Below, one piece after another: positions 38,629 to 62,566 of a stretch of 64,000 nt of DNA (position 1 is its first letter; every line of letters starts with the position of its first letter). A program made the position numbers and the translations under genes. The DNA lies in the NCBI GenBank assembly GCA_025041195.1, contig JAKCFM010000001.1, positions 310,001 through 374,000 of the forward strand. Reading direction: 5' to 3'. This stretch comes from Halobacteriales archaeon YIM A00013 (GTDB taxonomy: Archaea; Halobacteriota; Halobacteria; Halobacteriales; Haloarculaceae). The notes under the pieces were generated by a model, which worked only from the letters and a program-made list of their open reading frames with translations, did no database searches and was not told where the DNA came from.

Positions 38629-40195
38629 GTTTCAATCCCGTTCTGAATCTAGGGTACTGCGACCGTCAACGCGCTCCTCGTGGTTGTCTCGCACGAACAT
38701 GTTTCAATCCCGCTGTGGGTTTCTAGGGTCCTGCGACCGCCGACGGCGATCCCGATGAGGAACGAATGCCACTCGTTTCAATCCCGCTGTGGGTTTCTAG
38801 GGTCCTGCGACGTAGCGTTTGGCCTGATCGTAGGACGGCCCAACCGTTTCAATCCCGCTGTGGGTTTCTAGGGTCCTGCGACAATGGCCTCGGCTTCATG
38901 GTACTGCTGACCATCGTACCGTTTCAATCCCGCTGTGGGTTTCTAGGGTCCTGCGACAGATGAAACTGCCCTGATGGCGGCGGTCCTGATCATGTTTCAA
39001 TCCCGCTGTGGGTTTCTAGGGTCCTGCGACTTGTCGATATCGAACGTTTCCGTGCCGGAGCCGTCGTTTCAATCCCGCTGTGGGTTTCTAGGGTCCTGCG
39101 ACGCGACCGAGATCCCGTTAATGACGGCGATGATGATGTTTCAATCCCGCTGTGGGTTTCTAGGGTCCTGCGACTCAAGAGCAATCCGGACCGTGGGGAT
39201 GCAGTAAGATCGTTTCAATCCCGCTGTGGGTTTCTAGGGTCCTGCGACATACTTAATCCGAGAGAAAACGGATCTGGACAAAGGGTTTCAATCCCGCTGT
39301 GGGTTTCTAGGGTCCTGCGACTCCAAAGCTTCGAATAGCCAATAAATCGCTATCAAGTTTCAATCCCGCTGTGGGTTTCTAGGGTCCTGCGACGGTAGGA
39401 GTGTGTTATGCTCTGTCGAGGCGACGACGTTTCAATCCCGCTGTGGGTTTCTAGGGTCCTGCGACGAGTATCACAGCGACAACTATCTTAACTTCAACTG
39501 GGGTTTCAATCCCGCTGTGGGTTTCTAGGGTCCTGCGACGATTCGTCGGAATAGACGCTGTCGTACGTGATTTTGTTTCAATCCCGCTGTGGGTTTCTAG
39601 GGTCCTGCGACTTTTTCCCTTGTTCTGTTCTACTTCTCCTATGCCGTGTTTCAATCCCGCTGTGGGTTTCTAGGGTCCTGCGACCACTCATTGTTATCTT
39701 CCTCCAAATTGTATTCCGCAGTTTCAATCCCGCTGTGGGTTTCTAGGGTCCTGCGACTTGCATTGGCATTTTGTGGTCCCTCCATACTACATTGTTTCAA
39801 TCCCGCTGTGGGTTTCTAGGGTCCTGCGACGGAGCATCACCATCGGCCGAATAGACGGGGATACCGTTTCAATCCCGCTGTGGGTTTCTAGGGTCCTGCG
39901 ACATATTTGGAACAGTCATTGTACGCACTCGATTGCTGGAGTTTCAATCCCGCTGTGGGTTTCTAGGGTCCTGCGACGATGCATCTAGCGTATCGTCTAT
40001 GGCCCGTATTGCTTGTTTCAATCCCGCTGTGGGTTTCTAGGGTCCTGCGACGATACCAACGAGCCAGCAGAGACTCACCCTGTTTCGTTTCAATCCCGCT
40101 GTGGGTTTCTAGGGTCCTGCGACGTCTCGTATTCTGTTACTGTGTCCTTCATGCTTTGGTTTCAATCCCGCTGTGGGTTTCTAGGGTCCTGCGAC
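38629..40195 (-). CRISPR. CRISPR array 1 (22 repeats, 21 spacers)
   Basis: 21 repeats of 37 bases start GTTTCAATCCCGCTGTGGG and end CTAGGGTCCTGCGAC on the + strand; one shorter degenerate repeat at 38629-38663 ends the array. Spacers are 34-38 bases. The transcribed strand is the minus strand: the handle ATTGAAAC is then at the repeat's 3' end and the leader lies at the right. So the newest spacers are near 40159 and the oldest near 38664. The degenerate end repeat contains CCCGTTCTG, resembling array 3 rather than array 1. No spacers within this array are identical by eye. Confidence 0.98.
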
Positions 40196-40713: not shown

Positions 40714-42165
40714 ATGAAACAAACACGCAGACAAATAGTGAAAACCCTTTCTGGACTTCTCGCAGGGGGTGGTATACTCGGCCAAGGAGCAGGACAATTC
40801 ACTACTTCCGACAGCTCTATCATATCTCAAAATAAAGTAGCATCCAATACTAATACGACACCACTCGAAAATATGAATGGATCAACATATCTCGCACTCC
40901 CCGGCGCGTCATTGACCTCCCTGATGGCAAATCTGCCACAGCTACTTTATGATGATTCTCCTTCTGTTATCTATCTCGATTCATATGATTACGCTCGGCA
41001 TCGCGGTCGGTTTTTGACTGAACGGGGGAACACCAAGATCCAGGCCCTCGGAATGGCCTTCGAAGAATTACGTCGCCGTGGCAGACTTCGAACCATCAAT
41101 TACGGGGAGTACTATCCACAGTGGATTCAAGAACGGAACGCGGAGCAGTGTCAAGCATTGCTTGATGCCGCGTCCGACACGGCAGTGCAACACGCTGCAG
41201 TCCAGGCTGGGAACGGATACTTGGACTACTGTCTCGGTTCCTATCAAGACACCCTCCGAGCTGGATTAGACGATGGATCACCGTTCACTAACCGACGGGA
41301 AAGTGTGGCTCACCAACGTAAGAAAATGGAACGAGGAGGGGGAGATCCGGAGACCTGGCACAAGCGAATCTTCAGCCAATATCTGACTGCACTTGCAGTT
41401 CGTCACTACGTGAACCGCGACCGTGACGTGCACATCGACGGGATTATCGGCCAGGGAGAAACAAAAGGTATCGACGCACTCCTTCGCTCCTCTGATATCG
41501 ATATGAGTGACTTTGGATCACCTGGGTATCCTACAGACCATATCGGACGAGTCAACACAAAACGCAGCGCAGCCCTGAACAATCGACTGGATATGGTTGG
41601 TACGCTAGCGAGAGAGATCACAGGAACACAGCACCATGATTGCTTTCTGTTGGGTCCACGACTCGCTTTTCCTCAGCTCTCGGAGATATTCCCCGAAGCG
41701 TGGCATTCGCTCCAATCAGACTACGATATGTCTGAATTGGTCTCTGAGACCCACGAAATACTCTCACACCTCGAAACAGCGGATGAGGACAATCGGTCTG
41801 TGGCTGCGATTGAGGCCCAGGCTGATTGGCTTGCAGAGGAGAGTGACCTTTCCTCTACTGATACACAAGATTTGGTCGATCAGGTGGATTCCGCTGTAAG
41901 TCTCTCAAATCATTCCCGGGAACTGCGGGAGTTTGTCGCTGAGGGAAGGTCTCCAGCAGCAATTTATCTGGCTGCTTCGATCAAACAAGATCCACAGTAT
42001 CGATACAACGAAGATTCAATATTTAGCAGGGTCCAATTTTTGAAAAGTCGTCTCGAACCAATGGCAATCTCCAACTCAGAGATTGATTACTTCAAAGATC
42101 GAGGGAATTTCCGACGAGGAGAATCCGGCAAAGACTGGCATCAAAATTCTATCTTCCATCGATAG
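40714..42165 (+). CDS. Unknown protein with Tat-like N terminus
   Basis: 483 residues starting MKQTRRQIVKTLSGLLAGGG, a probable twin-arginine signal, with mature sequence from about residue 28. The body is hydrophilic and mostly helical. Recognisable features are few: a YLDSYDYARHRGRFLTERG stretch near residue 92, HYVNRDRDVHIDGIIGQGETKG near residue 233 and a basic C terminus. I do not recognise a family. It converges with the following regulator, stop codons adjacent. It opens the block lying between CRISPR arrays 1 and 2. Confidence 0.6.
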   Translation: MKQTRRQIVKTLSGLLAGGGILGQGAGQFTTSDSSIISQNKVASNTNTTPLENMNGSTYLALPGASLTSLMANLPQLLYDDSPSVIYLDSYDYARHRGRFLTERGNTKIQALGMAFEELRRRGRLRTINYGEYYPQWIQERNAEQCQALLDAASDTAVQHAAVQAGNGYLDYCLGSYQDTLRAGLDDGSPFTNRRESVAHQRKKMERGGGDPETWHKRIFSQYLTALAVRHYVNRDRDVHIDGIIGQGETKGIDALLRSSDIDMSDFGSPGYPTDHIGRVNTKRSAALNNRLDMVGTLAREITGTQHHDCFLLGPRLAFPQLSEIFPEAWHSLQSDYDMSELVSETHEILSHLETADEDNRSVAAIEAQADWLAEESDLSSTDTQDLVDQVDSAVSLSNHSRELREFVAEGRSPAAIYLAASIKQDPQYRYNEDSIFSRVQFLKSRLEPMAISNSEIDYFKDRGNFRRGESGKDWHQNSIFHR

Positions 42166-43143
42166 CTACTGTTGCAGTTTCTTGTATTGATCGAGACCGT
42201 CGGACTGTTGGTCTGTTTGGAGGGTCCATTGAAGATCGAGTGTCTGATCGGCACCAAGTTCTTGTCCAAGAATTCCTACCTTCTGTGCCAGTTCCTCAAC
42301 CGTCATCGATGATGAGAGCGTTAGCATGGGTTCATCGTCCACACAATACGCTGGATTGAGAGAGGCTGCCGTCGAATCACCGTCTAAGTTAACGACAATC
42401 CCTGTTTGGCACTCCTCGTGAGCGGATTGTGAGATATCGGCTATAGATGACTCAGCCGGGGGATCGGTTGTTTCTCTAGAGATTTCACTATGCCGCTTAA
42501 CGAATTTGAGTATCTGTTCGAACAGGCGAATCTGTTCCTCGCCTTTGTCAGTAAGTGTGATTTCTTGCCCCGCGAATTTAATAGACCCAGCAGTGTCAAA
42601 CTGATCGAGTCGGTACCAAACCTGTTTACTGGTCACTGTTTGGTACTGTTCCACATCGGCTACGATATCGGATTTTTTGAGTTTCTTCGAAGAGTATAAC
42701 AAATTAAATTGAGTACCAACGGAGCTACGACATCCAATCGAGTACAGGACAAAGAATATCAACGGACTACTCGATGTGTGAAGTGGATCGAGACACTCAG
42801 ATACGGCTGATATATCCGATTCGTCATCCCAATCAATGTTGTAGAGGTCAACACCAAAGGTTTCTGTCGTCTCCGATAGCAGTGCGAGAATCTTCCGTCC
42901 CTCCGGCGTGATTTCATAATTTGATCCGTCCTTGACGACGATCGGGATAGGCAGCTTCGAGAGCGTTTTAAGATGATTTGAGACGGTCGTTGGAGAACAA
43001 TCGAGTATTGAGGCTAGCTCCCGCTGCGTTTCGATGTCACTATCGGGAAAGAAGGCTGTTGCTAGGCGATTGGGCGTCAATGATTGTAATATCTTACCCG
43101 CTGAAACGATAGTTTCCGCATTTTCCGATTTCCTCTCTGGCAT
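42166..43143 (-). CDS. Transcriptional regulator with two winged-helix domains
   Basis: Residues 15-90 form an ArsR-like winged helix (ETQRELASILDCSPTTVSNHLKTL), and residues 145-215 form a second one (SDIVADVEQYQTVTSKQVWYRLDQF then ITLTDKGEEQIRLF). The C-terminal 100 residues are acidic and may bind partners. No ligand-binding domain can be named. It is divergent from the TFB gene, with 170 AT-rich bases between them, so it may control TFB or itself. Confidence 0.7.
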   Translation of the reverse strand: MPERKSENAETIVSAGKILQSLTPNRLATAFFPDSDIETQRELASILDCSPTTVSNHLKTLSKLPIPIVVKDGSNYEITPEGRKILALLSETTETFGVDLYNIDWDDESDISAVSECLDPLHTSSSPLIFFVLYSIGCRSSVGTQFNLLYSSKKLKKSDIVADVEQYQTVTSKQVWYRLDQFDTAGSIKFAGQEITLTDKGEEQIRLFEQILKFVKRHSEISRETTDPPAESSIADISQSAHEECQTGIVVNLDGDSTAASLNPAYCVDDEPMLTLSSSMTVEELAQKVGILGQELGADQTLDLQWTLQTDQQSDGLDQYKKLQQ

Positions 43144-43312
43144 TTTAATGACCTAGGTATCTATTGCGGCATGTATTTTGTGTCGTTAGAGTGAATCCAG
43201 AATTATTCGAACTTAGGCACCAGAATCAACCTATAGAGAATTAAAGCGCCAATAAATCATCTTATAGAAGAAAATATTTAGTAGGATTAGATATAACTGT
43301 GGAGTGGATCGT

Positions 43313-44278
43313 ATGAAGTCATCCTCAAAAGCAACCAAAAGGCATCCTACTAATGCTGAAGATAGCATAGTAGATTATGTAAGGATTCAGAATTCTTGTC
43401 CAGAATGCAACGGGAAAATTCGAACTGAATCGAGTAGCGATGAACGAGCCTGTGACGATTGTGGTCTTATAATCAAGGAAAACTCAATCGACCACGGTCC
43501 TGAGTGGCGCGCGTTCGATAGTCAGGAGCGAGGCCGAAAGTCCCGCGTGGGATCGCCTGTAACCAACACAATTCACGACAAGGGTCTTTCGACGAATATC
43601 GGTTGGCAGGACAGAGACGCGAACGGAAATTTGCTGTCGTCCAGGAAGCGCGAAACAATGAAGCGACTGCGGAAATGGGATCTCCGATGCAAGTCCCACT
43701 CCGCGAAGGAGCGAAATCTGAAACAGGCATTCACTGAGGTCGATCGGATGGCGAGTGCACTCGGACTCCCTCAATCAGTGCGAGAAACAGCGAGTATGAT
43801 CTACCGACGAGCTGTCGAGGAGGATGTCCTGGTTGGTCGATCGATCGAGGAATTCGCGACGGCTGCGCTCTATGGTGCGGCACGCAAAGAACAGATTCCA
43901 CGAACGCTCGATGAGGTGACTGCTGTCGCACGAGTTGGACGGACCCGAATCGCCAGGGCCTATCGAACGATCGTTGGAGAACTGGGCCTTGCCATCGAAC
44001 CCTCTGATCCGACCGAGTACTTGCCGCGATTCACTTCAGACCTCGATTGCTCACAGGCAGTCCAGCGCCGGGCATACGATCTGCTTGAGACTGTTGCTGG
44101 GACCACCTTCACCAGTGGGAAACACCCCGCTGGACTGGCGGCTGCGGCGCTCTATGCGGCGACGTGTCTCACTGGCGAGCGCGTCACGCAAGAGGAGATT
44201 GGCGAGGCTTCCGATGTCACTCCGATGACGATACGAACACATTACCGAGAGTTGTTGAGGATGTATTCATGCGAATAG
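43313..44278 (+). CDS. tfb: Transcription initiation factor IIB (accessory TFB)
   Basis: Zinc ribbon CPECNGK with ACDDCG near residues 30-50, then the B-reader and linker (GPEWRAFDSQERGRKSRVG) and two cyclin-fold repeats (residues 125-320) ending in TPMTIRTHYREL. TFB bridges TBP and RNA polymerase and selects promoters. Haloarchaea carry several TFBs, some used for special regulons. This one lies beside a regulator and the lanthipeptide genes, so it could be a dedicated factor. GGAG precedes ATG 43313 by about eight bases; a GTG at 43304 is in frame. Confidence 0.92.
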   Translation: MKSSSKATKRHPTNAEDSIVDYVRIQNSCPECNGKIRTESSSDERACDDCGLIIKENSIDHGPEWRAFDSQERGRKSRVGSPVTNTIHDKGLSTNIGWQDRDANGNLLSSRKRETMKRLRKWDLRCKSHSAKERNLKQAFTEVDRMASALGLPQSVRETASMIYRRAVEEDVLVGRSIEEFATAALYGAARKEQIPRTLDEVTAVARVGRTRIARAYRTIVGELGLAIEPSDPTEYLPRFTSDLDCSQAVQRRAYDLLETVAGTTFTSGKHPAGLAAAALYAATCLTGERVTQEEIGEASDVTPMTIRTHYRELLRMYSCE

Positions 44279-45212: not shown

Positions 45213-46283
45213 TTAATTTTCGAAAACAAATGACCCATCTTGCTGTATCATCTCACCATCGACAGTCACAACACCACCCTCCCGCATGTCAATGAGCATA
45301 TCGACGTGAATCGTGCTTTCATTCCCTCTCTTCGGAGCAGCTCGGTCGCTCGCACTCCCGAGGGCGAGGTGGACAGTCCCTGCCATCTTCTCATCGAAGA
45401 GGATGTTCTGAGTGAACTGGTCGATGCCACGATTCATTCCAAATCCAATCTCACCCAGTCGTCGAGCACCGCTGTCAGTATTGAGTAGTGATGTCAATGT
45501 GGATTCGTTTGTGGCTGCGTGGTGCTCAACTACTTCTCCTTGCTCGAACGTGAGAGTCACGTCTTCGATAGTCTGACCAGCATGTTGTACCGGAAAATCG
45601 AACTTGACTATACCATTTATAGAGTCAACAATTGGTGCGGTAAACACCTCACCGTCTGGAAGGTTTCCGCGTCCATCTCCATTAATGGCGTGCATACCAT
45701 TAACTGACATCGTGAGATCGGTGCCTGTTGGGCGGGTTAGATTGATCTCACTTGCGGATTCTAGATACTCGACCAACTGTTCTTGAAACTCATGCTGGGC
45801 CTCCCAGTCCTGATTGATAGCATTCCAAACGAAATCTTCGTACGCTTTGGTGCTCATTTCAGCCTGCTGTGCATTACCTGGTGCTGGATAGACTGTAAAC
45901 ACATCTCTATCAGGAACTGCTTCCTGGACTGGTGCACTCGCACGTGCTACAGCTTGTCCAACTTCGGCGGGAGTTTCGCTATGTTCTGCAGTGTTTGTAT
46001 GACTTTGAATAACAATATGAACATCTGTTTCCTCCATCGCTGCTACGGTATGCTCAGCTGTAACAGCATCCTCCGGGGCGAGTGCTTGAAGATAGGCTGC
46101 ATTGGCACGGGAATTGAGCCACGTGAGCCTCGGACGTGCACCGATCTGTCCAAGTTGTTCATTCAGGGCGATAACCAGCTTCTCTGCAGAGGTCGGTGCC
46201 TTGACCTCTACCATATCGCCTTGCTCGACACGAGCAGAATGGTGTATTAGAATTGACGCATGGCGTTGAATTCGTTTGTCCAT
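45213..46283 (-). CDS. M29-family aminopeptidase
   Basis: 356 residues of the thermophilic metalloprotease (M29, AmpS/PepS) family. The C-terminal half contains the paired metal site: INGIVKFDFPVQHAGQTIEDV, VEHHAATNESTLTSLL (His and Glu ligands), GEIGFGMNRGI, and NESTIHVDMLIDM (His and Asp). I chose ATG 46283 (MDKRIQRHASILIHH) because the family begins there; the open frame runs 43 codons further with no conservation. It removes N-terminal residues from peptides. It is divergent from the lanM group, so a part in trimming a leader peptide is possible but unproven. Confidence 0.82.
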   Translation of the reverse strand: MDKRIQRHASILIHHSARVEQGDMVEVKAPTSAEKLVIALNEQLGQIGARPRLTWLNSRANAAYLQALAPEDAVTAEHTVAAMEETDVHIVIQSHTNTAEHSETPAEVGQAVARASAPVQEAVPDRDVFTVYPAPGNAQQAEMSTKAYEDFVWNAINQDWEAQHEFQEQLVEYLESASEINLTRPTGTDLTMSVNGMHAINGDGRGNLPDGEVFTAPIVDSINGIVKFDFPVQHAGQTIEDVTLTFEQGEVVEHHAATNESTLTSLLNTDSGARRLGEIGFGMNRGIDQFTQNILFDEKMAGTVHLALGSASDRAAPKRGNESTIHVDMLIDMREGGVVTVDGEMIQQDGSFVFEN

Positions 46284-46427: not shown

Positions 46428-46556
46428 ATGATTGAGAAATCACCACCCGATCTGAAGACGGGCATAGAACACCACTATCGACGAGAGGACCTTCCGGTTG
46501 AAATCGGGAGATTGGACGAATCTGGACAAGGATCTGTTCCAGCTCCACAGTGCTAA
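46428..46556 (+). CDS. Candidate lanthipeptide precursor peptide
   Basis: A 42-residue frame directly upstream of the LanM gene, same strand. The first 30 residues are charged (leader-like, MIEKSPPDLKTG... then DLPVEIGRLDE), and the last residues are SGQGSVPAPQC with cysteine as the final residue before the TAA. Ser and Cys in the tail could form one lanthionine ring. A TATA-like box at correct distance supports expression. Against it: only one Cys, no classical GG motif, and the frame is the same as that of lanM, so it could also be an N-terminal extension cut off by a stop codon. Assignment is tentative. Confidence 0.4.
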   Translation: MIEKSPPDLKTGIEHHYRREDLPVEIGRLDESGQGSVPAPQC

Positions 46557-46634
46557 GGAGGGACAATAGATTCTGATCACGGGACACAGCAATCCCTTGT
46601 ATCGAATCTAACCGACACTAGTTATTTACACAAC

Positions 46635-49600
46635 GTGAAAATGGTGCCAGCATTATCGACGGAAGAAAAACAAGCAATTGCAGGTCGTGCACGAACACTG
46701 CACGAACGTATTGAGATGTCCTCCGCCAGTGGAAAACCGGTTGACAATCCAAACGCCTGGATGGATGAGTGGGAGGAACGGGTTGTAGACGGGGACAAAG
46801 CACAGTTCACTATACGACTTGATCAGCTTGGATTGTCATATGGAGATTGTCGTGAACGACTCCAAAACCATGGATGGCCAGCAGAAAAATCGCTTCCTGA
46901 GTGGGTTCATCAACTTGATGACCTTATCCAATACGTAGCCACAAAACCAACTGAAATAACCCACTCCGATGCTGAACAGCCCTTCGAACATATACTTTCA
47001 GTTATCGTTGCGTATGCGACTGAGAGGCTTGATATAGACATTCCTCGATATATCTCTGAGAGCGCCGTTGATGGGTCGAAAGATGTACTCTATTCCCGTC
47101 TCGATCTGTTCGTTACTCATCCTCTGTTTATTGAGTTCAAAACCTTTTTCGCACAGCGAGATGAATCGCTGATCTTCAGCGAAGATCCTACACCTACCGG
47201 AGATCCTCACCAGTATTACGACCAATTTGTTGGCGCTGTGCTAGCTGACGGGTTGAAATCGTTCTTCATCGAGTATGCCTTTCTCGCACGACTAATCACG
47301 ACATTTATCAACCAATGGTTCACCACTATCGAGGAGTTTTGCAACCGTCTAGAGAGTGACTACCTACAATTGGAAGCAATAACTTCGAAAGATGAGCAAC
47401 TTGGAACGCTTATCGACATTGAACCCAAAGGCGATTGGCATGAAGGCGGCAGACAGGTATTATGCCTCACGTTCGAAGATGGACGAAAGATAGCCTATAA
47501 ACCCAGAAATCTCGATCTCGAAGCAGGACTATTCGAGCTCCTCTCCTGGATCAACAAATCTGGCGAAATGATAAATTTCGAAAGTATTGCAGTTATCCCC
47601 CGAGACGAATATGGTTGGGTTGAGTGGATTGATCCTGCCCCTTGCTCTGTTGAAGAGGAGGTAAAACAATACTATCACCGCGCTGGCGCACTCACGTGCC
47701 TTTTGTATCTTCTTGGATTCTCCGATGGTCATCTAGAAAATATCATCGCAGCGAACGAGCACCCCGTCGTCATAGATGCAGAGACACTCGCCCAACCCCA
47801 GCCAGATCCGTCACATCTTCCGGTGAATCGGACACTCAGACGTGTAATGCATGAATCTGTTCTGCGTACGGGATTGGTTCCAATGCATTGGCCGGACAGC
47901 GACTCCACGGACAACAGTGGATTTGGACGGAGTACGATGCATTCGGAGGTGCAAAATCGAGAATTTCGAGATATAAATACTGATCTCATGGAGTTGAGCT
48001 ATCAAAGTGAAGCAACGCTAGAGGGAGATAATCTTCCCACACTGGATGGACAAAAGGTCAAAGGAGATGATTATGTGTCTGACATCATCCAGGGCTTCGA
48101 AGGGATGTACGATTTTCTCCAGACTCACAAGGAAACACTTCTAGCTGAGGAGACGCTCACCCACTTTCGGGATGCAGAAGTTCGGTATGTCTTTCGGCCG
48201 ACCGATAATTATGCCCGCATTCTGACTATGATGACCACACCGCAGTATCTCAGAACTGGCCTTAAATTCGGCTGTAAGGTCGAATCTCTCGCTCGACCGT
48301 TGCTCTCCGGAACTGAGTCAACTAGTGTTTGGAAGTTATATACAGCTGAGAGAGTCGCTCTTCGAAATGGAACGTTTCCCCGTCTCTCAACCACTACTGA
48401 TAGCACTGAATTGCGGGTGGGTACGACTATAATCGAGGAGTTCTTCGAGAAAACCTCACTATCTCGACTCAACTACTCAATTAATCGTCTCTCTGATACT
48501 GACCAACAGGAACAGCAGCGATACCTCCGGTGGGCACATGGTGGTTCACTTCACTCAAATCACCGCTCAACCACTATGTCCTCCACCCTTCATGATCCTC
48601 ACACAATCGTCAATGAGAACGCAGCGACCTGCGCACGCGACATTGGCGAACGAATTCTCTCGAACGCAAATTACACTCACACGGGAGAATTGACCTGGAT
48701 TCGACGAACTCTCGGCCCGAATGGTGGAGTTCATCTTCATACTATTCCTCCTGGATTGTATGCCGGATGGATGGGACTGGCTCTGTTTATGGCAGCGCTT
48801 TACCGGGTTACTGAGGAAAAGAAGTATGGAGCGGCCATTGAAGAAATTGTAGATCCGATAGCAGATCCGAAGACAGGAGGTTTTCAGCCGAGCGAACAAT
48901 CTGTCGGTGGCGGCACTGGTCTGGGTGGGATAGTGTACGGTTTCACAAAACTCGGAACCTTCCTTGCCGACGATCGATACTCCGAAATCGCCACTAGGTA
49001 TCAGTCAATGCTCACACCAGACCGCATTATTTCCGATGACGCATTCGATGTAGTGGATGGCAGTGCTGGAGCGATACTTGGGCTTCTTGCACTTTACGAG
49101 GCAACTGGACATTCACAGTCGTTAGAACGAGCAGAGATAGCTGGTGATCACCTACTGAAACACAGCACGGAGATCGACGGAATACCAGTCTGGATACCGA
49201 GTACTATTGAGCAGCCGCTTACAGGATTCGCTCATGGGACCTCTGGTATCGCATACAGCCTCACTCGACTTTCCACCGCTACACAGGCTGACCGATTCAG
49301 GGAAACGGCTCTGAACAGTCTCGCGTATGAGCGACACCAGTACGTTGCCAGGGAACAGAATTGGCGGGATCTTCGTCCGGATTCGTCTTCATACATGGAT
49401 GCTTGGTGTCATGGACGAAGCGGAATAGGTCTCGCACGACTCGGAATTGCCGAACACGGAGATTTGGAACAGGTACAAGACGAACTCAATCAGGCACTGG
49501 ACGGGGTGACAATGGCCCTCGCAGATGACGACCACCTCTGTTGTGGTACCTCCTCCCGTATTTCGTTTCTTCTCCAAGCAGCTCAGGTGTTGGACGAACC

Positions 49601-49793
49601 AAAGTATCGCGAGCAAGCCACCCAGCTGCTAGCAGCGAGTATCGAACAGTCAGCCACGCGAGGACGGTTTCGTACGAAGTGGCAAACTCAACACTGGTAT
49701 GATCCCGCGTTCTTCCAAGGGGAGGCCGGGATTGGATACATCTTGCTCCGTTGGCTCGATCCAACGCTACCATCTATTGCGCTTTTTGAATGA
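46635..49793 (+). CDS. lanM: Class II lanthipeptide synthetase LanM (CCG type)
   Basis: 1,052 residues. The N-terminal dehydratase domain shows GRKIAYKPRNLD near residue 284, FSDGHLENIIAA (Asp364) and VVIDAETLAQP (Asp381): kinase-like residues that phosphorylate and eliminate Ser/Thr of a precursor. The C-terminal cyclase resembles LanC: FAHGTSGIAYSL, then zinc ligands Cys925 in WCHGRSGIG and Cys969-Cys970 in LCCGTSS. A third cysteine in place of histidine defines the CCG group, which includes the relaxed-specificity ProcM. GTG 46635 or ATG 46641 may be the start. No transporter gene is adjacent. Lanthipeptide synthetases are known from haloarchaea. Confidence 0.93.
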   Translation: MKMVPALSTEEKQAIAGRARTLHERIEMSSASGKPVDNPNAWMDEWEERVVDGDKAQFTIRLDQLGLSYGDCRERLQNHGWPAEKSLPEWVHQLDDLIQYVATKPTEITHSDAEQPFEHILSVIVAYATERLDIDIPRYISESAVDGSKDVLYSRLDLFVTHPLFIEFKTFFAQRDESLIFSEDPTPTGDPHQYYDQFVGAVLADGLKSFFIEYAFLARLITTFINQWFTTIEEFCNRLESDYLQLEAITSKDEQLGTLIDIEPKGDWHEGGRQVLCLTFEDGRKIAYKPRNLDLEAGLFELLSWINKSGEMINFESIAVIPRDEYGWVEWIDPAPCSVEEEVKQYYHRAGALTCLLYLLGFSDGHLENIIAANEHPVVIDAETLAQPQPDPSHLPVNRTLRRVMHESVLRTGLVPMHWPDSDSTDNSGFGRSTMHSEVQNREFRDINTDLMELSYQSEATLEGDNLPTLDGQKVKGDDYVSDIIQGFEGMYDFLQTHKETLLAEETLTHFRDAEVRYVFRPTDNYARILTMMTTPQYLRTGLKFGCKVESLARPLLSGTESTSVWKLYTAERVALRNGTFPRLSTTTDSTELRVGTTIIEEFFEKTSLSRLNYSINRLSDTDQQEQQRYLRWAHGGSLHSNHRSTTMSSTLHDPHTIVNENAATCARDIGERILSNANYTHTGELTWIRRTLGPNGGVHLHTIPPGLYAGWMGLALFMAALYRVTEEKKYGAAIEEIVDPIADPKTGGFQPSEQSVGGGTGLGGIVYGFTKLGTFLADDRYSEIATRYQSMLTPDRIISDDAFDVVDGSAGAILGLLALYEATGHSQSLERAEIAGDHLLKHSTEIDGIPVWIPSTIEQPLTGFAHGTSGIAYSLTRLSTATQADRFRETALNSLAYERHQYVAREQNWRDLRPDSSSYMDAWCHGRSGIGLARLGIAEHGDLEQVQDELNQALDGVTMALADDDHLCCGTSSRISFLLQAAQVLDEPKYREQATQLLAASIEQSATRGRFRTKWQTQHWYDPAFFQGEAGIGYILLRWLDPTLPSIALFE

Positions 49794-49800
49794 GCGTAAC

Positions 49801-50327
49801 AGTCTGGACTTCGGCGTGATTCGTGAGGTTGACTAAGCTATCGAGCGTCTTGAACAGATACCGCTCGCAGATCTCGCGCAACCGACCTAGGAGTGGTACA
49901 ACGACCGACGGAGTGAATTGGCTCACCAATTCAACGCAACGATAATTCACGACGATCTCAAGCCACTGCATTTCCTTGTGGTGACTGATGAAAAACCAAC
50001 CATCAGTGCCACCGTCGATTGGGAGGATGTGATGGCCGGCCCACCCGAACTGCAGGTTACAATAGCCCTCACATTATTCGATCGACAGCTTGGGGAACTC
50101 GATAAACCGACGATCTACGATCGGTCTGTGAACGGCTATCGATCAGTTCAAGACCTCCCAGCAGGCTATGAACAGGGTGGCACGCTGTATGAGCTCAGAC
50201 TAGTCGCCTAGTCAGCACTCTTCAGCCGGATCTCGGCACCAGTGACGGTTATGAAACGGCTGTCGAACGCTATGCTCGAACAGCCTTCTATCAGGGCATT
50301 GAAGATAGAGAACTCATTTGGTATTAA
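49801..50327 (+). pseudogene. Decayed aminoglycoside-phosphotransferase-like kinase
   Basis: Translation from 49801 gives a phosphotransferase-like sequence broken by stops at 49834 and 49888 (TAA, TAG): AIERLEQIPLADLAQPT, stop, EWYNDRRSELAHQFNATIIHDDLKP. The Brenner-type motif is IIHDDLKPLHFLV and the metal motif is VDWEDVMAGPP. After another stop near 50209, the frame shifts and continues as SDGYETAVERYARTAFYQGIEDRELIWY to TAA at 50327. A TTG-initiated 97-codon frame (49918-50211) survives but lacks the N-lobe. This is a remnant, probably of a kinase gene that arrived with the block. Confidence 0.75.
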
Positions 50328-50442: not shown

Positions 50443-50823
50443 TAGGGTCCTGCGACTTAGACGAATTTCTTGCAATCCAAACACCATATCCCGTTTCAAT
50501 CCCGCATTGGGTTTCTAGGGTGCTGTAACGATTGACCACCTCAATATTGATGAAGCCGACCGCGTGTTTCAATCCCGCATTGGGTTTCTAGGGTGCTGTA
50601 ACGATTGACCACCTCAATATTGATGAAGCCGACCGCGTGTTTCAATCCCGCATTGGGTTTCTAGGGTGCTGTAACAATACAGTAAACGAGTGTGAGACAG
50701 TCGCAATGATAGTTTCAATCCCGCATTGGGTTTCTAGGGTGCTGTAACCCCATCGGGACTACTGCAATCTCAAACGTTCAGACGTCGTTTCAATCCCGCA
50801 TTGGGTTTCTAGGGTGCTGTAAC
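50443..50823 (-). CRISPR. CRISPR array 2 (5 repeats, plus a truncated sixth)
   Basis: Five 37-base repeats at 50493, 50566, 50639, 50712 and 50787. They start GTTTCAATCCCGCATTGGG and end CTAGGGTGCTGTAAC, so the middle and the end differ from arrays 1 and 3. The first and second spacers (50530-50565 and 50603-50638) are identical. A broken repeat TAGGGTCCTGCGAC at 50443-50456, followed by a 36-base spacer, carries the array 1/3 ending. The leader is at the right, and transcription is leftward. Confidence 0.95.
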
Positions 50824-52314: not shown

Positions 52315-53425
52315 GTTTCAAACCCGTTCTGTCTAGGGTACTGCGACAGGGACTCCGGAGTGAAAACGCACGTAGGCCGCTCAGTTTCAATCTCGTATTG
52401 GGTTTCTAGGGTCCTGCGACCGAACGCGCAGCAGTTGGATTGGGAGGAGTGGGAGGTTTCAATCCCGTTCTGGGTTTCTAGGGTCCTGCGACAGGTTCGG
52501 CAGCAGATAGACGACGCTGTTCGCGAGTTTCAATCCCGTTCTGGGTTTCTAGGGTCCTGCGACGAAGCGCGGCCCAAACGGACAATCGCAGTCGTCCTGT
52601 TTCAATCCCGTTCTGGGTTTCTAGGGTCCTGCGACGAAGCGCGGCCCAAACGGACAATCGCAGTCGTCCTGTTTCAATCCCGTTCTGGGTTTCTAGGGTC
52701 CTGCGACATCCTCTTGCTTAGCCCAGAAAGGCAGATTCCTATCGTTTCAATCCCGTTCTGGGTTTCTAGGGTCCTGCGACAGAATAGGTGTCATCGGTTG
52801 CATCGCCATCGACATGTTTCAATCCCGTTCTGGGTTTCTAGGGTCCTGCGACCCGACGGCCCGGTTGCGATCGAGATAGTCGAATAGGTTTCAATCCCGT
52901 TCTGGGTTTCTAGGGTCCTGCGACCATTCAAACCCATTCGACGGAACGTTTCGATGTTGTTTCAATCCCGTTCTGGGTTTCTAGGGTCCTGCGACGAAAC
53001 TGAGTCCGTTGGAGTCTGAAGCCGCGTATATGTTTCAATCCCGTTCTGGGTTTCTAGGGTCCTGCGACGTCGTCGTTTGGAGGGCTCGTCAGTCATCGAT
53101 AGTTTCAATCCCGTTCTGGGTTTCTAGGGTCCTGCGACTTCGTACACTGCGCGTGTGCCATCGTCGGCAGCCGTTTCAATCCCGTTCTGGGTTTCTAGGG
53201 TCCTGCGACTTCGCAGCATCGATATCGATGAAGTCTGTGGTAAGTTTCAATCCCGTTCTGGGTTTCTAGGGTCCTGCGACTTCGCAGCATCGATATCGAT
53301 GAAGTCTGTGGTAAGTTTCAATCCCGTTCTGGGTTTCTAGGGTCCTGCGACTCGGCGTGCGCAAGAATGGGGTTCTGTACGTCAAGGAGTTTCAATCCCG
53401 TTCTGGGTTTCTAGGGTCCTGCGAC
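52315..53425 (-). CRISPR. CRISPR array 3 (16 repeats, 15 spacers)
   Basis: Repeats start GTTTCAATCCCGTTCTGGG and end CTAGGGTCCTGCGAC. The leftmost, 52315-52347, is degenerate and short; the next, 52384-52420, has CTCGTATTGGG. Two adjacent spacer pairs are identical: 52564-52598 with 52636-52670, and 53210-53243 with 53281-53314. Leader is at the right, so crRNAs are transcribed leftward from next to cas2. The array lies directly at the end of the cas operon. Confidence 0.98.
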
Positions 53426-53542: not shown

Positions 53543-53815
53543 CTACAGAACGTTCGATTTTTGCTCTGGTGGTGAAACACCGAGATCCGTAATCGCATCA
53601 CAGCAGGCTCCACACAGTCGATAAACTCGAATACGATCTCCGTCGGTAGGTTCTATCAGAGACTCCAGCTCCGATTCCAACTCGACTCGCTCGGTTTTCG
53701 AGATGTCCAGCTCGAACACACTGTACTGCTGCCAGGCTCCGTATCGCTCAAGCGTCCGATACACCTGCCGCCGATTCCCGTCATCACTCACGTCATAGGT
53801 CACAGCGAGTCTCAT
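53543..53815 (-). CDS. cas2: CRISPR-associated endoribonuclease/adaptation protein Cas2
   Basis: 90 residues, ferredoxin fold: MRLAVTYDVSDDGNRRQVYRTLERYG with the metal aspartate, then QYSVFELDISKTERVELESELESL and DRIRVYRLCGAC. With Cas1 it forms the spacer integration complex. ATG overlaps the cas1 stop by three bases. Size is typical. Confidence 0.95.
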   Translation of the reverse strand: MRLAVTYDVSDDGNRRQVYRTLERYGAWQQYSVFELDISKTERVELESELESLIEPTDGDRIRVYRLCGACCDAITDLGVSPPEQKSNVL

Positions 53816-54807
53816 CGGTTCACCGCCAATGCATGGTATGCATCCAGCTCTCCGGTGATCGCTTTTCGCAGGAGTATCACCTGCTGGCGAATAGCGCTCC
53901 GGCGGCTCACTTCATAATCAAAGTGAGGATGAGTGAACGTCTCTTTCATGTAATCGTCGAATTTGTCGAGATACACCTGGAACGCATCATCGGTGAGATG
54001 GTTGTTCTTCTTGAACTGATCGTGGGTGAGCGTCCGTCGGTTCACTAACCGCATCACGAAGGCGTCACAGAACAACGGCCGAAACTCTTCCTGCAGGTCT
54101 AACGCCAACGATGGACGCCCATGGCGATCAGCGTGGAGCACACCAAGGAACGGATCGAGGTTGTAACACCGCAACGCACTCAACACCTCGTTTTTCATCA
54201 TCACGTAGGTTAACGAGAGAAGTGAGTTGATGTGATCCTCCGGTGGCCGCTTGCTCCGTGTTTCGAACGTCCATCCCTCTATGAGTGTTTCATCAAGACG
54301 GCCGAAATATCGCTCCGCAGCTTCTCCTTCGACGCCACGAAGATCATCCTTGTTCGAGACTGAGGTACCTCGATCGCCGATCGCTGCAAGATCATCAGTG
54401 CCGGTGACTCCCTTTCGGGAGAGCAGTGTTCGTGCGTTTCGGATCTTCGCGTCGATCATTGCCGATGCGATCGTGAGCTCATCTTTCTCCGATAGTGCAT
54501 ACTGTGCCCGCCGAACTTCTGCTATCGTGTTCCGTTCGGGAACGAAACTTCCGCGGTAGTTTCCGATCTCGGTGAAGTAGTTGAGCACGATTCCGTGTTC
54601 ATTGGCTTTCGCGACAAACGGCGTCGTGAAGTTCACACCACCGAAGACGTTGATCGTATCCACCTTTTCGATCGGGAACGTTCCCAGTGCTCCCTGCTCT
54701 CCATCAACGTCATAGACAACGATCTTCCCACCGTCGGTCTGAATTTGTGCACCCTGGGTCGTGACGAACAACACCGAATCGGTGAACAATCCATCGCTGG
54801 CTTTCAT
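53812..54807 (-). CDS. cas1: CRISPR-associated integrase Cas1
   Basis: 331 residues. Beta-rich N domain (FVTTQGAQIQTDGGKIVVYD) and a helical C domain with the metal ligands: the glutamate in LSLTYVMMKNEVLSAL near residue 208, the histidine in FLGVLHADRHGRPSLALDLQEEFRP near residue 235 and the acidic residue in DLQEEFRP. ATG 54807 (MKASDGLF) overlaps the cas4 stop by ATGA. Integrates new spacers next to the leaders described above. Confidence 0.95.
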   Translation of the reverse strand: MKASDGLFTDSVLFVTTQGAQIQTDGGKIVVYDVDGEQGALGTFPIEKVDTINVFGGVNFTTPFVAKANEHGIVLNYFTEIGNYRGSFVPERNTIAEVRRAQYALSEKDELTIASAMIDAKIRNARTLLSRKGVTGTDDLAAIGDRGTSVSNKDDLRGVEGEAAERYFGRLDETLIEGWTFETRSKRPPEDHINSLLSLTYVMMKNEVLSALRCYNLDPFLGVLHADRHGRPSLALDLQEEFRPLFCDAFVMRLVNRRTLTHDQFKKNNHLTDDAFQVYLDKFDDYMKETFTHPHFDYEVSRRSAIRQQVILLRKAITGELDAYHALAVNR

Positions 54808-55430
54808 GGGGGCTCCTCCGGTGAGACACCTTCCCAATCGGTTCCTACTGCCTCATTAGGGGCGAGAACTGCTGTTTCACCAGGCATACAGTACGTCCGT
54901 GCGGAACAGGCATCGCATTTCGATCGATTATCAATTAATGATGGAACGTTATTGATAGACATAGTCTGTATTTGATCGATTATGTTCCGAACAGCATCAC
55001 GGTGTTTGGGTGTAATTCGGACTGCGTGCCTGGTGTCTGTTGAGTAGAGATAGATATAGCCAACGGAAACCGGTTCTTCGAGGACGGCTTCGAGTAACAT
55101 ACAGTATCCAGCGAGCTGAAGTTCGTCACTCGCGTAATACGATCCACTCTCAGCCCGCTTGCGCTCGACTGGCGTGAGTGTCCCACTGTCCGTCTCGATG
55201 AGATCGATCTTTCCATGGAGTCCGAGCTCGTCAGACCGGAAATACCGTTCTTTGATCCATCCCCCACGTCGGGAAGAGGTATCATGTTTTAACCGTCCGT
55301 CGACAAGTTCGTACGGCTCGCCGATTTCATCGTAGTAGCGCTGGTAGTAGTACCGTCGTGGACAGTAGACATATTCGTTCAACGCACTCACGTATACTAG
55401 CTCGTCTTTGAAACTCGATCTGGTAGGCAT
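54804..55430 (-). CDS. cas4: CRISPR-associated exonuclease Cas4
   Basis: 208 residues with RecB-like nuclease motifs (HGKIDLIE with the Asp, PVERKRAESG with the Glu/Lys) and an iron-sulfur cluster set: EYVYCPRRYYY at the N terminus and CDACSARTYC near residue 175. It trims prespacers and helps choose the PAM. Start ATG 55430 (MPTRSSFKDEL) lies one base past the cas3' stop; an open frame upstream overlaps cas3'. Confidence 0.93.
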   Translation of the reverse strand: MPTRSSFKDELVYVSALNEYVYCPRRYYYQRYYDEIGEPYELVDGRLKHDTSSRRGGWIKERYFRSDELGLHGKIDLIETDSGTLTPVERKRAESGSYYASDELQLAGYCMLLEAVLEEPVSVGYIYLYSTDTRHAVRITPKHRDAVRNIIDQIQTMSINNVPSLIDNRSKCDACSARTYCMPGETAVLAPNEAVGTDWEGVSPEEPP

Positions 55431-55431
55431 C

Positions 55432-57582
55432 TCAGATATCCATTCCGAACTGTTCGAGGTTGATCGATTCGTGTTCTTCCTGCACGGCGCAGTGGAGATA
55501 CAGAGCATCGGTACCGATGGCAATCGACATCATTTCATCAGCAACTTTTAATTTAGTGAGGAAGAAGAACGCACCCAAATCGTAGTAGTTCTTCGCTTCC
55601 CTGGTAGTCTCTTTAATAGCGTAACAAAGGATGTTCTCCTGGGCCAATCCCTCACGTAAGTGCTCAATGCTCGTGATTCGTTTCGAACCGTCCGTAACAT
55701 CGAGATCGACAGAGAGACCACTCACAATCTCTGGGGAACGGGTACGTCTATGTTGTCCATCATCGCTTCGTAACCACGCGTATATATCAGTACCAGCTTC
55801 CAGCGCTACGTCGCGTCCGTATCCTTCGTCGTCGGTGTCTATCGTGCCATTGTAGGTACAGTATCCCACGACGTACGGCTCTGCTTGTTCAATGTCGTCG
55901 TTGTGTTCGTCCGGAACGACTTGTTTGAATTCGTCATTTGAGAGGAATTCGACGTCTCCGTATCGAAGTAAATAGAACAAGTTGTACGTTTTGACAGGGT
56001 TTTCAGCGTCAGTTCTTTGATCGTACACGAGCACTGAAATCGAATCACCACGATACCACCTCAGCGTTTGATCAACCCGCTCGTTGATGATATCTACATA
56101 TCGCTCGATATCTGACCGGTTAATGTGCTTTTCTTCCGAGCCGTAGTGCTGAGTAATGCGTTCCCAACCTTTCTCCCGGATCTGAGTTGCAACTTCGGAG
56201 TTTGCGTTTCGGGCTCGCCGCTGAATGTGGTGGTATGCCTCGGCAGCCGAGTAACGCCAGTCGAACGATGCTGGGTCGCGTGGATCATGATACGCCTCGG
56301 AGAGAGTACCGGTAAGTTCGGCGCGAGAGATTCGTGTGTCACACCTTTTATCCATCAGAGCGTCTGCCACGACCGGAGGGACGTAACATCGTGCTTGTTG
56401 GCACTCTGATTTCGTTCGGAGTCGGCCAAGTCGTTGGAGAAAGCTTGATCGGTTATGAGCCGAGAACACGAGCCGATCGACATCGAAATCGATCCCGACT
56501 TCGACAGCCGAGTTGCTTACCAGCACATCAAAGTCCTCAAGCTTAGCCTGAAGATCACCACGATGCAACCCGTCAATTCGAATGACTTCGGATTCATCGA
56601 GTTCCGCGTTGAGCTGTTGATAAACCTGCTCTACCTCGTGAAGTCCATCGAGAATGAAAACGGTTCGACCTGGACGGACTGCAAAGTCGAATGTTTCTTC
56701 CCAATCTGCATCGAGTAATTTATCTACAGTCTTGAATGTTGGAGCTGATCGAATATCAAGATCAACAGGTGGCATCACGGCCGACCATCCGTCTGTCGGC
56801 GTTTCACTGTACGCTTGCTGCTCGTTAGATTCTCGAAGACCTGTAATGCGCGTGTACGATGCACTCATTGCTTGCTCGAATCGCTGTTCGAGCCGTTCGG
56901 TCGGTGTGGCACTCAATAGTATGATCCGTGAGAGTGCACATTGATACTCCGGAAGATCGTACATCTCGTCAAGCAGGAATAGTAATGTATTCTGCTCTTT
57001 TCGTTCAGCTCGATGAAATTCGTCAACGACAATTGTGTCAAACTCATCCAAAGCACGAATGCGTGCCCCTGAATCACCTGAACGCCCATACAGATGTCGG
57101 CGCATCATCACGAAGATGTCTGGATTAGTGAGGACGATCACCTGTCCATCCCCGTTCCAAACGTTCTGGCTCAAAAGCCTATGAAGACGCTCTCCATTCG
57201 AGTTGGCGTTTGGATACGCCTTTGCGTGTTCCGTCCGAAGCGAATCAGCAGTGATCGTGAGGATTTCTGTATCAGCGCTGTGGCTAGGAAACTGTGAAGC
57301 AAGCTCTCTTTCGATATTTTTCTCTTGATCGTGAATGAGTGCGTTTGTTGGGTAGATGATAAGTGTGTGGTCGCCGCTCTCAATGATCGGTGAGATCCAT
57401 GACATCGTCTTGCCTCCTCCGGTTGGACTGTCGTTTACTGCCAGAAACGAGTCCTCGTTCACGAACAGGTCACGGAGATCTTGTTGATGAGCATATGGTT
57501 TGAATTCTGCACTCTCGGCTGGATATTCGGGATCTTTGTGCTGACGAAGTTCAACGCCGGACAGATGAAGTGGATCATTCAT
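55432..57582 (-). CDS. cas3': Type I-D Cas3' helicase
   Basis: 716 residues. DExH helicase: Walker A SPTGGGKT (residues 52-59), IIYPTNALIHDQ, box II VVDEFHRAE, SAT motif LLSATPT, and later VGIDFDVDRLVF and FLQRLGRLRT. There is no HD nuclease domain; in type I-D the HD domain is in Cas10d, as seen here. It unwinds target DNA for degradation. The start lies two bases after the csc1 stop. Confidence 0.93.
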   Translation of the reverse strand: MNDPLHLSGVELRQHKDPEYPAESAEFKPYAHQQDLRDLFVNEDSFLAVNDSPTGGGKTMSWISPIIESGDHTLIIYPTNALIHDQEKNIERELASQFPSHSADTEILTITADSLRTEHAKAYPNANSNGERLHRLLSQNVWNGDGQVIVLTNPDIFVMMRRHLYGRSGDSGARIRALDEFDTIVVDEFHRAERKEQNTLLFLLDEMYDLPEYQCALSRIILLSATPTERLEQRFEQAMSASYTRITGLRESNEQQAYSETPTDGWSAVMPPVDLDIRSAPTFKTVDKLLDADWEETFDFAVRPGRTVFILDGLHEVEQVYQQLNAELDESEVIRIDGLHRGDLQAKLEDFDVLVSNSAVEVGIDFDVDRLVFSAHNRSSFLQRLGRLRTKSECQQARCYVPPVVADALMDKRCDTRISRAELTGTLSEAYHDPRDPASFDWRYSAAEAYHHIQRRARNANSEVATQIREKGWERITQHYGSEEKHINRSDIERYVDIINERVDQTLRWYRGDSISVLVYDQRTDAENPVKTYNLFYLLRYGDVEFLSNDEFKQVVPDEHNDDIEQAEPYVVGYCTYNGTIDTDDEGYGRDVALEAGTDIYAWLRSDDGQHRRTRSPEIVSGLSVDLDVTDGSKRITSIEHLREGLAQENILCYAIKETTREAKNYYDLGAFFFLTKLKVADEMMSIAIGTDALYLHCAVQEEHESINLEQFGMDI

Positions 57583-57584
57583 CG

Positions 57585-58334
57585 TTATCGTTTCATTTTA
57601 AGGAATTCCACGTCTGATGGGAGTCGGATGGCATCTTCTCTATCCTCCTCATTGTGTTCGTTCGCGCCGTCTGTCCGGCGGAGTACTACGTGCTCGCCCT
57701 CATAAGTCGCCTGCACAATTAGAGGAGTTGGACGCATTCGCTTGGTGATCAGATTCCCGGTTGGCATCCGATCGGAGTCATACACCCCGATCGGGTGACC
57801 GAGTGAGAACTCACCGCTGTCACTGTCGACATTCAGTCGTTCTATCGCTAGCTTCGCCTTGCCGCGTTTTTTTCCAAGGCGAATGTATCCAGGGACGCTA
57901 TTTGCGAGCTCGTCGGTGGGTATGCCACGGCCCAGCAGCAAACACCGAAGTGCGTTTCCGTGACCGAGGACCCGGCGGCGACCGAACGTCGGCAGGTTTT
58001 TCCCTGCATCTGGATCCTTTTCTGCAGAGTAGTTGACAGTCGCGTAGTCGTCGGTGTTCGTGTTGTAAGTGGAGGTGATTCGGTTTGCAGTACCCTCGCC
58101 TCGGCCTATTGGAGCTGCAGGTGAGACGTATACCGTTTGTGCGATCTCCGCAGTGTCATCCAGATACGTCGGGTTGAATGAACGATCTATATACCGGCCT
58201 GATGCTAATCCAAACGCATAGTAGAGCGCTGTGTTGAGAAAGTACGACTCCGTATCTGCAAGCCGACCGAGCTCGCGGCTTGCAAACCAAATCTCACCTT
58301 GCGTTCGGATCGTTACTTCGAGTGCAGACTCCAT
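57585..58334 (-). CDS. csc1: Csc1 (Cas5 subunit of type I-D)
   Basis: 249 residues. N terminus VTIRTQGEIWFASRELGRLADTESYFLNTALYYAFGLA carries the Csc1/Cas5d signature (key piece IWFASRELGRLADTE). A glycine-rich RRRVLGHGNALRC and GYIRLGKKRGKAKL follow. It caps the 5' handle of the crRNA in the effector complex. Four bases after csc2. Confidence 0.9.
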   Translation of the reverse strand: MESALEVTIRTQGEIWFASRELGRLADTESYFLNTALYYAFGLASGRYIDRSFNPTYLDDTAEIAQTVYVSPAAPIGRGEGTANRITSTYNTNTDDYATVNYSAEKDPDAGKNLPTFGRRRVLGHGNALRCLLLGRGIPTDELANSVPGYIRLGKKRGKAKLAIERLNVDSDSGEFSLGHPIGVYDSDRMPTGNLITKRMRPTPLIVQATYEGEHVVLRRTDGANEHNEEDREDAIRLPSDVEFLKMKR

Positions 58335-58337
58335 AGG

Positions 58338-59327
58338 CTACTCGTCGGCTTGCTTGATGAACGCCTGTGAGGCATCTCTCTGGGTTTCTAGGATCTCTGC
58401 GAGCGAATCTCCCGAGGCAGTTCCAATCAGTTCTGAAATCGTCTCTTCAGGCACCCGTTCAATGTCGAGCCCGCCGTGTTCTCTCTCAATTCGGTCTTCG
58501 AACGATGATTGGAGGTGCTTACTAACAGTCTCAGGATCGTGGGCAGAGGCTGTGATGACCTCCTGAATGGATTCATGAGCGGTGCTGCTGTCATTCCGAA
58601 GGCGTCGAATGATGTCTCGTGTCAGTCCAAGATTCGCAGGACCTTCTTCGCTGCCTGTATACACGCCGAGGATGTGGTTCTTCACTCGGCCGAGACGAGT
58701 GGTAGCAGCACCGTACCGCTTGTTTTTAACTGTTACACCGAGCACAAACGCGAGTTCTTCTGGCGTCGCATCCCGGAGGGTTACGACCGTCGGGAACAGC
58801 GTACCAGGTTCGAAAAAGTCGGGCTCTCGAATCGTCGGCTCAGCTTCTTTCGCGTAGTCGTCACCAGGTGCGTTCTGGAATTTGTCATCGATAGCAACTG
58901 TAGCGTCCCGAAGGGTGTATGCAGTGTCGTACATCACTCGGGACGTAATTGATAGGGAGCTATCGGCATCAGAACTCGCAGCACTACCGTAGAGCACGCA
59001 CTCAACGCACTCTTGGCACATGCTGTTGACCTGCATCGTGCAGTCGGTGTCAAGGAGATCTCGTTGGAGTGATTTTCCGAATCGGCGGTCACTGCCGGTC
59101 TGTTTTCGCATGAACAGTAGTCCTGGTGAGTATGTTTCACGATCTTCACCAGATCCGACAGCAACACTTGCAAGATCAGCATTTTCACCATCGGTCGTGA
59201 AAATTGCGTGACTCTCCAACTCTCGAAGTACGAGAATACTCGTAAAGTTGCTCTGTGGAGCGATACTCATCTCGTCACGGTGAACGGTGCCACGTTCTAG
59301 TTCTGGGTAGGTATCGTAGTCGATCAT
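58338..59327 (-). CDS. csc2: Csc2 (Cas7 subunit of type I-D)
   Basis: 329 residues, backbone protein that polymerises on crRNA. Features: RGTVHRDEMSIAPQ near residue 12, KQTGSDRRFGKSLQRDLL near residue 76, a Cys-rich MCQECVECVLYG segment that probably binds zinc, and VTVKNKRYGAATTRLGRVKNHILGVYTG (key piece KRYGAATTRLGRV). ATG 59327 (MIDYDTYPEL) lies seven bases after the cas10d stop. Confidence 0.92.
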   Translation of the reverse strand: MIDYDTYPELERGTVHRDEMSIAPQSNFTSILVLRELESHAIFTTDGENADLASVAVGSGEDRETYSPGLLFMRKQTGSDRRFGKSLQRDLLDTDCTMQVNSMCQECVECVLYGSAASSDADSSLSITSRVMYDTAYTLRDATVAIDDKFQNAPGDDYAKEAEPTIREPDFFEPGTLFPTVVTLRDATPEELAFVLGVTVKNKRYGAATTRLGRVKNHILGVYTGSEEGPANLGLTRDIIRRLRNDSSTAHESIQEVITASAHDPETVSKHLQSSFEDRIEREHGGLDIERVPEETISELIGTASGDSLAEILETQRDASQAFIKQADE

Positions 59328-59334
59328 TGTATTG

Positions 59335-62304: not shown

Positions 62305-62566
62305 CTTTTTCCTCCTGTTCTGACATTTCGATTACGATGTACTCGGACGGCCAGATCAGTCTTCCCGAAATTTGAAATCTTTTCCCTCTTTTGGAGATTT
62401 TTTTGTTGGAAAGGATGATATGTGACTGTCCATCCTGTGTTTCCAACTGGTGAATATATCTCGGTTCTTTCGGATATCTTGGATTTTTTGACACCCATTC
62501 TACTTGTTCGATGTCCACGATCACCTCGACTGGATTCGGTTGCATATTGATGCCAATTATTACCAC
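62285..62566 (-). CDS. Small ORF between cas6 and cas10d
   Basis: 93 codons from GTG 62566, or 86 from ATG 62545. After MQPNPVEVIVDIEQVEWV the sequence alternates polar and hydrophobic residues (HIILSNKKISKRGKRFQISGRLI then EYIVIEMSE), like a small beta-barrel. It uses AGA arginine codons heavily (several), unlike the neighbours. It overlaps the cas10d start by 20 bases, so translation may be coupled. A TACATA sequence at 62591-62596 (minus strand) lies about 26 bases before GTG 62566. It may be an accessory subunit, or a toxin controlled by the guide-like RNA next to it. I recognise no family. Confidence 0.5.
   Translation of the reverse strand: MVIIGINMQPNPVEVIVDIEQVEWVSKNPRYPKEPRYIHQLETQDGQSHIILSNKKISKRGKRFQISGRLIWPSEYIVIEMSEQEEKDECIRW

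What the first reader, a model, noticed from the sequence alone, without database searches (positions are those of the whole stretch)
46428..49793. Archaeal CCG-type LanM lanthipeptide synthetase
A full-length class II synthetase with both catalytic domains intact. The cyclase has Cys969-Cys970 where most LanM proteins have Cys-His. This CCG group includes ProcM, which modifies many unrelated precursors, so the archaeal enzyme may also be tolerant and may use precursors encoded elsewhere. The lack of a transporter and protease in the immediate cluster is unusual.
Basis: partly seen in the sequence, partly recalled or inferred. Interest (0 to 1): 0.75.

Follow-up and report, generated by a model that had tools for sequence, protein, structure and literature searches.

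The report
Archaeal lanthipeptide synthetase with its precursor

Summary
The LanM is real and intact: window 46641-49793 (+), 1050 aa, TIGR03897 LanM at 774 bits, with dehydratase and cyclase residues kept. The reported start, 46428, is wrong: an in-frame TAA ends that frame after 42 codons. Those 42 codons look like the missing precursor, LanA. The ORF aligns with a precursor in the same place beside the closest LanM relative, from the same genus (score 56; shuffles 20.5 ± 4.5, 0 of 5000; above all 6216 haloarchaeal small ORFs under stricter scoring). Both share a GSV...P.C core.

The CCG motif is confirmed but usual: 37 of 44 full-length haloarchaeal LanMs have it, and CCG in archaeal LanMs is already published. 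Archaeal LanMs form one clade on the CCG side of the tree; this enzyme falls with the archalan γ synthetase. I found no sign of ProcM-like dispersed precursors.

No transporter was found in the cluster and no C39 peptidase in the genome, but an intact M29 aminopeptidase gene lies divergently next door. The cluster may be eroding: a downstream APH-like kinase gene is a pseudogene. It sits between CRISPR arrays of a type I-D locus. New member of a known kind.

The parts
46428..46556 (+). probable LanA precursor, 42 aa, MIEKSPPDLKTGIEHHYRREDLPVEIGRLDESGQGSVPAPQC; leader about 1-30, core about ESGQGSVPAPQC
   Evidence: Separate ORF. Aligns end to end with the precursor 5' of the same-genus LanM relative (L083), score 56, 0 of 5000 shuffles; above all 6216 haloarchaeal small ORFs under a stricter gap penalty. 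Weak with a family profile that leaves it out (11.9 bits, E 0.86 genome-wide).
46641..49793 (+). LanM class II lanthipeptide synthetase, 1050 aa (GTG alternative start at 46635)
   Evidence: TIGR03897 774 bits, Pfam, alignment to LicM2 6st5 and CylM 5dzt, tree.
47274..48386 (+). LanM dehydratase domain (DUF4135)
   Evidence: PF13575 361 bits; active-site positions D265, H267, K287, D362, H364, N367, D379, E381, R515, T521 (ATG numbering) all kept (their roles in CylM are recalled from the literature).
48747..49769 (+). LanM cyclase domain (LANC_like)
   Evidence: PF05147 198 bits; zinc ligands C925 (49407-49409) and C969-C970 (49539-49544), GTG numbering.
49834..50300 (+). remnant of an APH-like kinase gene (pseudogene)
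   Evidence: 63% identical to residues 187-311 of the APH-like protein after the LanM of L201, with two in-frame stops and a frameshift before residues 318-346; the first 186 residues are missing.
45213..46283 (-). M29 family aminopeptidase, divergent neighbour; membership in the cluster unproven
   Evidence: PF02073 190 bits; one of four in the genome; absent from the other archaeal LanM loci examined.
43304..44278 (+). TFB-type transcription factor, context only
   Evidence: PF00382 and PF08271; 68% identical TFB in the same order upstream of the LanM in L201.

Best explanation
A minimal haloarchaeal class II lanthipeptide locus. LanM (46641-49793) recognises the leader of the small precursor encoded just upstream (46428-46556), phosphorylates and eliminates one or both core serines (ESGQGSVPAPQC), and its Cys3-zinc cyclase adds the single C-terminal cysteine to a dehydroalanine, giving one thioether ring. 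The leader is probably removed by a general or neighbouring peptidase, since no C39 peptidase exists in the genome. Shown: the intact enzyme, its clade, and the position of, and similarity between, the two same-genus precursors. Inferred: substrate pairing, ring, trimming, and that the locus is still active despite the decayed kinase gene.
For: LanM assignment and residues. Tree: all 44 archaeal LanMs one clade (100), bacterial CHG enzymes apart (100), this one in a 4-row clade (95) with the LanM of L196, whose locus encodes a precursor ending in CSCYTRICCDIDS, identical to the archalan gamma core verified in PMC12144867. Precursors near the clade's LanMs share a leader of the form K..(F/I)E..Y.R(D/E). 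The closest relative, from Actinarchaeum halophilum (same genus), has the same LanA-then-LanM layout and a GSV...P.C core; similarity 0 of 5000 shuffles and highest of 6216 small ORFs, whose own best scorers include known precursors. No second credible precursor of this family in the genome: the only other family hit lies in another frame of a 629-aa ORF.
Against: A profile that leaves this ORF out scores it weakly (11.9 bits, E 0.86) and ranks an out-of-frame hit above it; the genome-wide protein search with the relative's precursor did not list it. The core has only one cysteine. The adjacent kinase gene is dead, so the locus may be decaying. The closest relative's LanM has lost its cyclase.
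Confidence: 0.75

Rival explanations
1. ProcM-like tolerant synthetase that serves many unrelated precursors scattered in the genome.
For: CCG motif; the tolerance of CCG enzymes such as ProcM and SyncM is stated in PMC10027976 and PMC12328550. The genome has a second precursor with an unrelated leader on contig C3.
Against: Only one credible precursor of this leader family genome-wide; clade relatives have one to three local precursors; the C3 precursor has its own LanM, 31% identical to this one, and is conserved beside the homologous LanM in L197. CCG is the archaeal default.
Confidence: 0.08
2. Decaying locus: the enzyme is still intact but no longer makes a product, the upstream ORF being a precursor remnant.
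For: APH-like kinase pseudogene directly downstream; same-genus relative truncated after residue 639; low leader-profile score.
Against: LanM has an open frame of 1050 codons with every catalytic position kept, and the precursor keeps a start, a stop, core serines and a terminal cysteine.
Confidence: 0.15
3. The 42-codon ORF is not a precursor and the true substrate is elsewhere or lost.
For: Weak family-profile score, and not listed with the relative's precursor as query.
Against: Same place and shared core with the same-genus precursor; shuffle and ORF controls.
Confidence: 0.12

Closest known systems
Archalan gamma system of Halorussus salinus (PMC12144867); same precursor core found in L196 (genome G413)
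   Same: Same LanM subclade, CCG cyclase, short precursor with the K..(F/I)E..Y.R leader.
   Different: Core unrelated (CSCYTRICCDIDS, several rings and a disulfide) against a single-Cys core here; about 40% LanM identity.
Actinarchaeum halophilum YIM 93972 plasmid locus (L083/L050)
   Same: Closest LanM (45-46%), LanA about 76 bases before LanM, GSV...P.C core.
   Different: Its LanM stops after about residue 639, without a cyclase.
Archalan alpha/beta, medlan, larlan and other archaeal class II systems (PMC10105419, PMC12144867)
   Same: Class II LanM found in archaea only in Haloarchaea; single-chain LanM.
   Different: Other LanM clades and other leader families.
ProcM / prochlorosins
   Same: CCG zinc site.
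   Different: Cyanobacterial, Nif11-type leaders, about 30 scattered precursors; not seen here.

Membership tests
Class II lanthipeptide synthetase (LanM) | Fused DUF4135 dehydratase and LanC-like cyclase | tested here: met
   PF13575, PF05147, TIGR03897.
Class II lanthipeptide synthetase (LanM) | Dehydratase kinase/lyase residues and zinc ligands | tested here: met
   All ten positions and the three Cys ligands kept.
Class II lanthipeptide synthetase (LanM) | Catalyses dehydration and thioether formation | not testable with these tools
   Needs co-expression and mass spectrometry.
Haloarchaeal LanM clade | Groups with archaeal LanMs | tested here: met
   One clade of 44, support 100.
CCG-type LanM | Cys-Cys-Gly in place of Cys-His-Gly | tested here: met
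CCG-type LanM | Placement apart from CHG enzymes | tested here: met
   Bacterial CHG rows split off at 100; ProcM not included, and bacterial sampling was biased to near relatives.
ProcM-like diversity-generating system | Many precursors with a shared leader, scattered in the genome | tested here: not met
   One credible hit of this leader family in 3.73 Mb; other leader families were not searched genome-wide.
ProcM-like diversity-generating system | Relaxed substrate specificity | not testable with these tools
   Biochemical.
LanA precursor of the leader family found with archalan gamma | Conserved leader upstream of a variable Cys-bearing core, beside LanM | tested here: inconclusive
   Strong against the same-genus precursor, weak against the family profile.

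The most novel reading that the evidence does not exclude
The precursor, LanM and the divergent M29 aminopeptidase form a dedicated pathway without a transporter-peptidase, in which an aminopeptidase trims the leader to a single-ring peptide, in a genus that includes a hyphae- and spore-forming archaeon; the peptide might act in development rather than as an antibiotic.
Probability: 0.05. Interest if true: 0.6.

Novelty: new member of a known kind. Interest (0 to 1): 0.3.

Why it matters
It corrects an annotation that merged a precursor with its enzyme, adds a probable single-cysteine precursor type to the small set of archaeal lanthipeptides, and shows that a CCG motif in an archaeal LanM is no evidence of ProcM-like breadth. 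It gives a ready pair to test in Haloferax volcanii.

Tried and rejected
Start at 46428: rejected, in-frame TAA. A precursor like that of the genome's second LanM anywhere in the window: no credible match. Exact leader pattern in the window: none; found only with looser comparison. Genome hit at C1:1091513-1091614 as a second precursor: rejected, in another frame of a 629-aa membrane-protein-like ORF and without a fitting stop. C39 transporter-peptidase: absent from the genome. M29 gene as a conserved cluster member: not found in the other archaeal LanM loci examined, four copies in the genome. The 483-aa ORF/HTH pair as part of the cluster: it is a multicopy module with copies in genomes or places without LanM. 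The ProcM sequence could not be fetched, and no structure model was run since sequence settled the family.

Full report
WHAT IS THERE. The window lies in a 3.73 Mb haloarchaeal genome of three contigs. Its genus, as assigned by the tool, includes a genome that matches Actinarchaeum halophilum YIM 93972 by its 99,700-base plasmid contig. A LanM gene occupies 46641-49793 on the + strand. It matches TIGR03897 at 774 bits, PF13575 and PF05147, and the solved LanMs LicM2 and CylM. All ten dehydratase positions checked and three zinc-site cysteines are kept.

THE START. The finding begins at 46428. That frame reads 42 codons and stops at TAA. LanM then opens at ATG 46641 (MVPALSTEEKQAIAGRARTLHERIE), which lines up with the N-termini of relatives such as MSLTTEEKKRVAVRAKTLHDRLR; GTG 46635 is possible. 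The quoted Cys969-Cys970 fits the GTG start.

THE PRECURSOR. Next to the LanMs most like this one lie short ORFs with a shared leader, for example MPTNTDNVKAQFEKEYAREEPTV... and MSATSMPTNDLKAQFEDKYARDEPTI.... A profile of seven such leaders found more: L195 at 26.4 bits; L083, the same-genus relative, at 19.9; L196 at 15.2; L193 at 13.4; and then the window ORF at 5.8 bits, level with background. The window ORF is much closer to the L083 precursor: MIEKSPPDLKTGIEHHYRREDLPVEIGRLDESGQGSVPAPQC against MSELDMTSVKEQIEAKYSRNDYQIRIHEMGSSSGGSVKGHPDCD. The local score is 56 against a shuffle mean of 20.5, sd 4.5, maximum 46 in 5000; it is the best of 1626 small ORFs in the fetched stretches of this genome, the next being 40. 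With stricter gaps and 6216 haloarchaeal ORFs as background it scores 53, above all of them; the runners-up (51, 44, 40) look like lanthipeptide precursors, and the one at 40 ends much like the archalan beta core (that core is given). A Gumbel fit gives about 1e-5 per ORF, so about 0.26 over a whole genome, but small for the few ORFs beside a LanM (the last step is my inference). Against this, a family profile without the window ORF scores it 11.9 bits, E 0.86, in the whole genome, and a genome search with the L083 precursor did not list it. I hold the precursor assignment at about 0.85. The better-scoring hit lies in another frame of a 629-aa ORF and has no fitting end.

CLADE AND MOTIF. Of 44 full-length archaeal LanMs, 37 have Cys, Cys, Cys, Gly at the aligned zinc-site positions; of the bacterial ones fetched, 35 have CCG and 29 CHG. 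In a 77-row tree the archaeal LanMs are one clade (100), the bacterial CHG rows are apart (100), and the window's LanM is in a 4-row clade (95) with L196, L051 and L193, inside a 9-row clade (99). L196 encodes a precursor ending in CSCYTRICCDIDS, exactly the verified archalan gamma core (PMC12144867). That archaeal LanMs carry CCG is stated in PMC10027976. Bacterial rows were fetched by similarity to the archaeal set, and ProcM was not among them, so the tree does not place the enzyme relative to ProcM.

SURROUNDINGS. Downstream is the remnant of an APH-like kinase gene (about 49834-50300) with two in-frame stops, a frameshift and no N-terminal half. Intact kinases of this kind follow the genome's second LanM, its relative in L197, and the split LanM of L201. 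Upstream and divergent is an M29 aminopeptidase gene (45213-46283), one of four in the genome. No C39 peptidase is in the genome, and no transporter appears among the ORFs tested from 40.7 to 52 kb. PMC10105419 says most archaeal class II clusters include a transporter, so its absence is mildly unusual. G+C of the LanM gene is 0.49 against 0.60 for the first 38 kb. The cluster lies between CRISPR arrays at 38701-40195 and 50493-50823, with a third at 52384-53425 and type I-D cas genes from 53.5 kb on.

HOW IT MOST LIKELY WORKS. LanM binds the leader, dehydrates Ser32 and/or Ser36 of the 42-mer and closes one ring to Cys42. Trimming is likely by general peptidases; PMC12144867 reports trace product from larA and larM alone and invokes generic host peptidases. 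Steps after translation are inference. The biological role is unknown; known archaeal lanthipeptides inhibit other haloarchaea or alter motility, and an anti-haloarchaeal or signalling role is the default guess.

NOVELTY. A new member of a known kind, with a probable new core type.

Noticed in passing
40714-42165 (+) and 42166-43143 (-): A 483-aa protein with a twin-arginine-like N-terminus and no family hit, convergent with an HTH regulator. Homologues of the first occur in 8 of 392 genomes of the order, up to four matches per genome, five of the eight in this genus, often beside a homologue of the regulator.
   Followed up: partly
38701-40195, 50493-50823, 52384-53425, cas genes 53546-63580: Three CRISPR arrays with similar flanking leader-like sequence and a type I-D cas set; the lanthipeptide cluster sits between the first and second array.
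   Followed up: partly
L005 10429-14025 (contig C3): A second LanM with CCG and a divergent 86-aa precursor ending DSSSTCKSTACGGKSCH, conserved in L197 of the same genus, followed by an intact APH-like kinase.
   Followed up: partly
L058, L059, L064, L066, L070, L074, L201: Split LanMs: separate dehydratase (about 650 aa) and cyclase (about 400 aa) genes, with CHG rather than CCG in the cyclase.
   Followed up: no
L201 112-10375: Same gene order as the window (483-aa relative, HTH, TFB, precursor-like ORF 5962-6099, LanM, APH kinase) but with a split CHG LanM in place of the single CCG one.
   Followed up: partly
L039, L045, L052, L053, L056, L195: Full-length archaeal LanMs whose aligned zinc-ligand positions lack two or all three cysteines, so the cyclase may be altered or dead (or the alignment is off there).
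   Followed up: no
46557-46640: A GGAGGG directly after the precursor's stop codon, about 80 bases before the LanM ATG, too far to serve that start.
   Followed up: no
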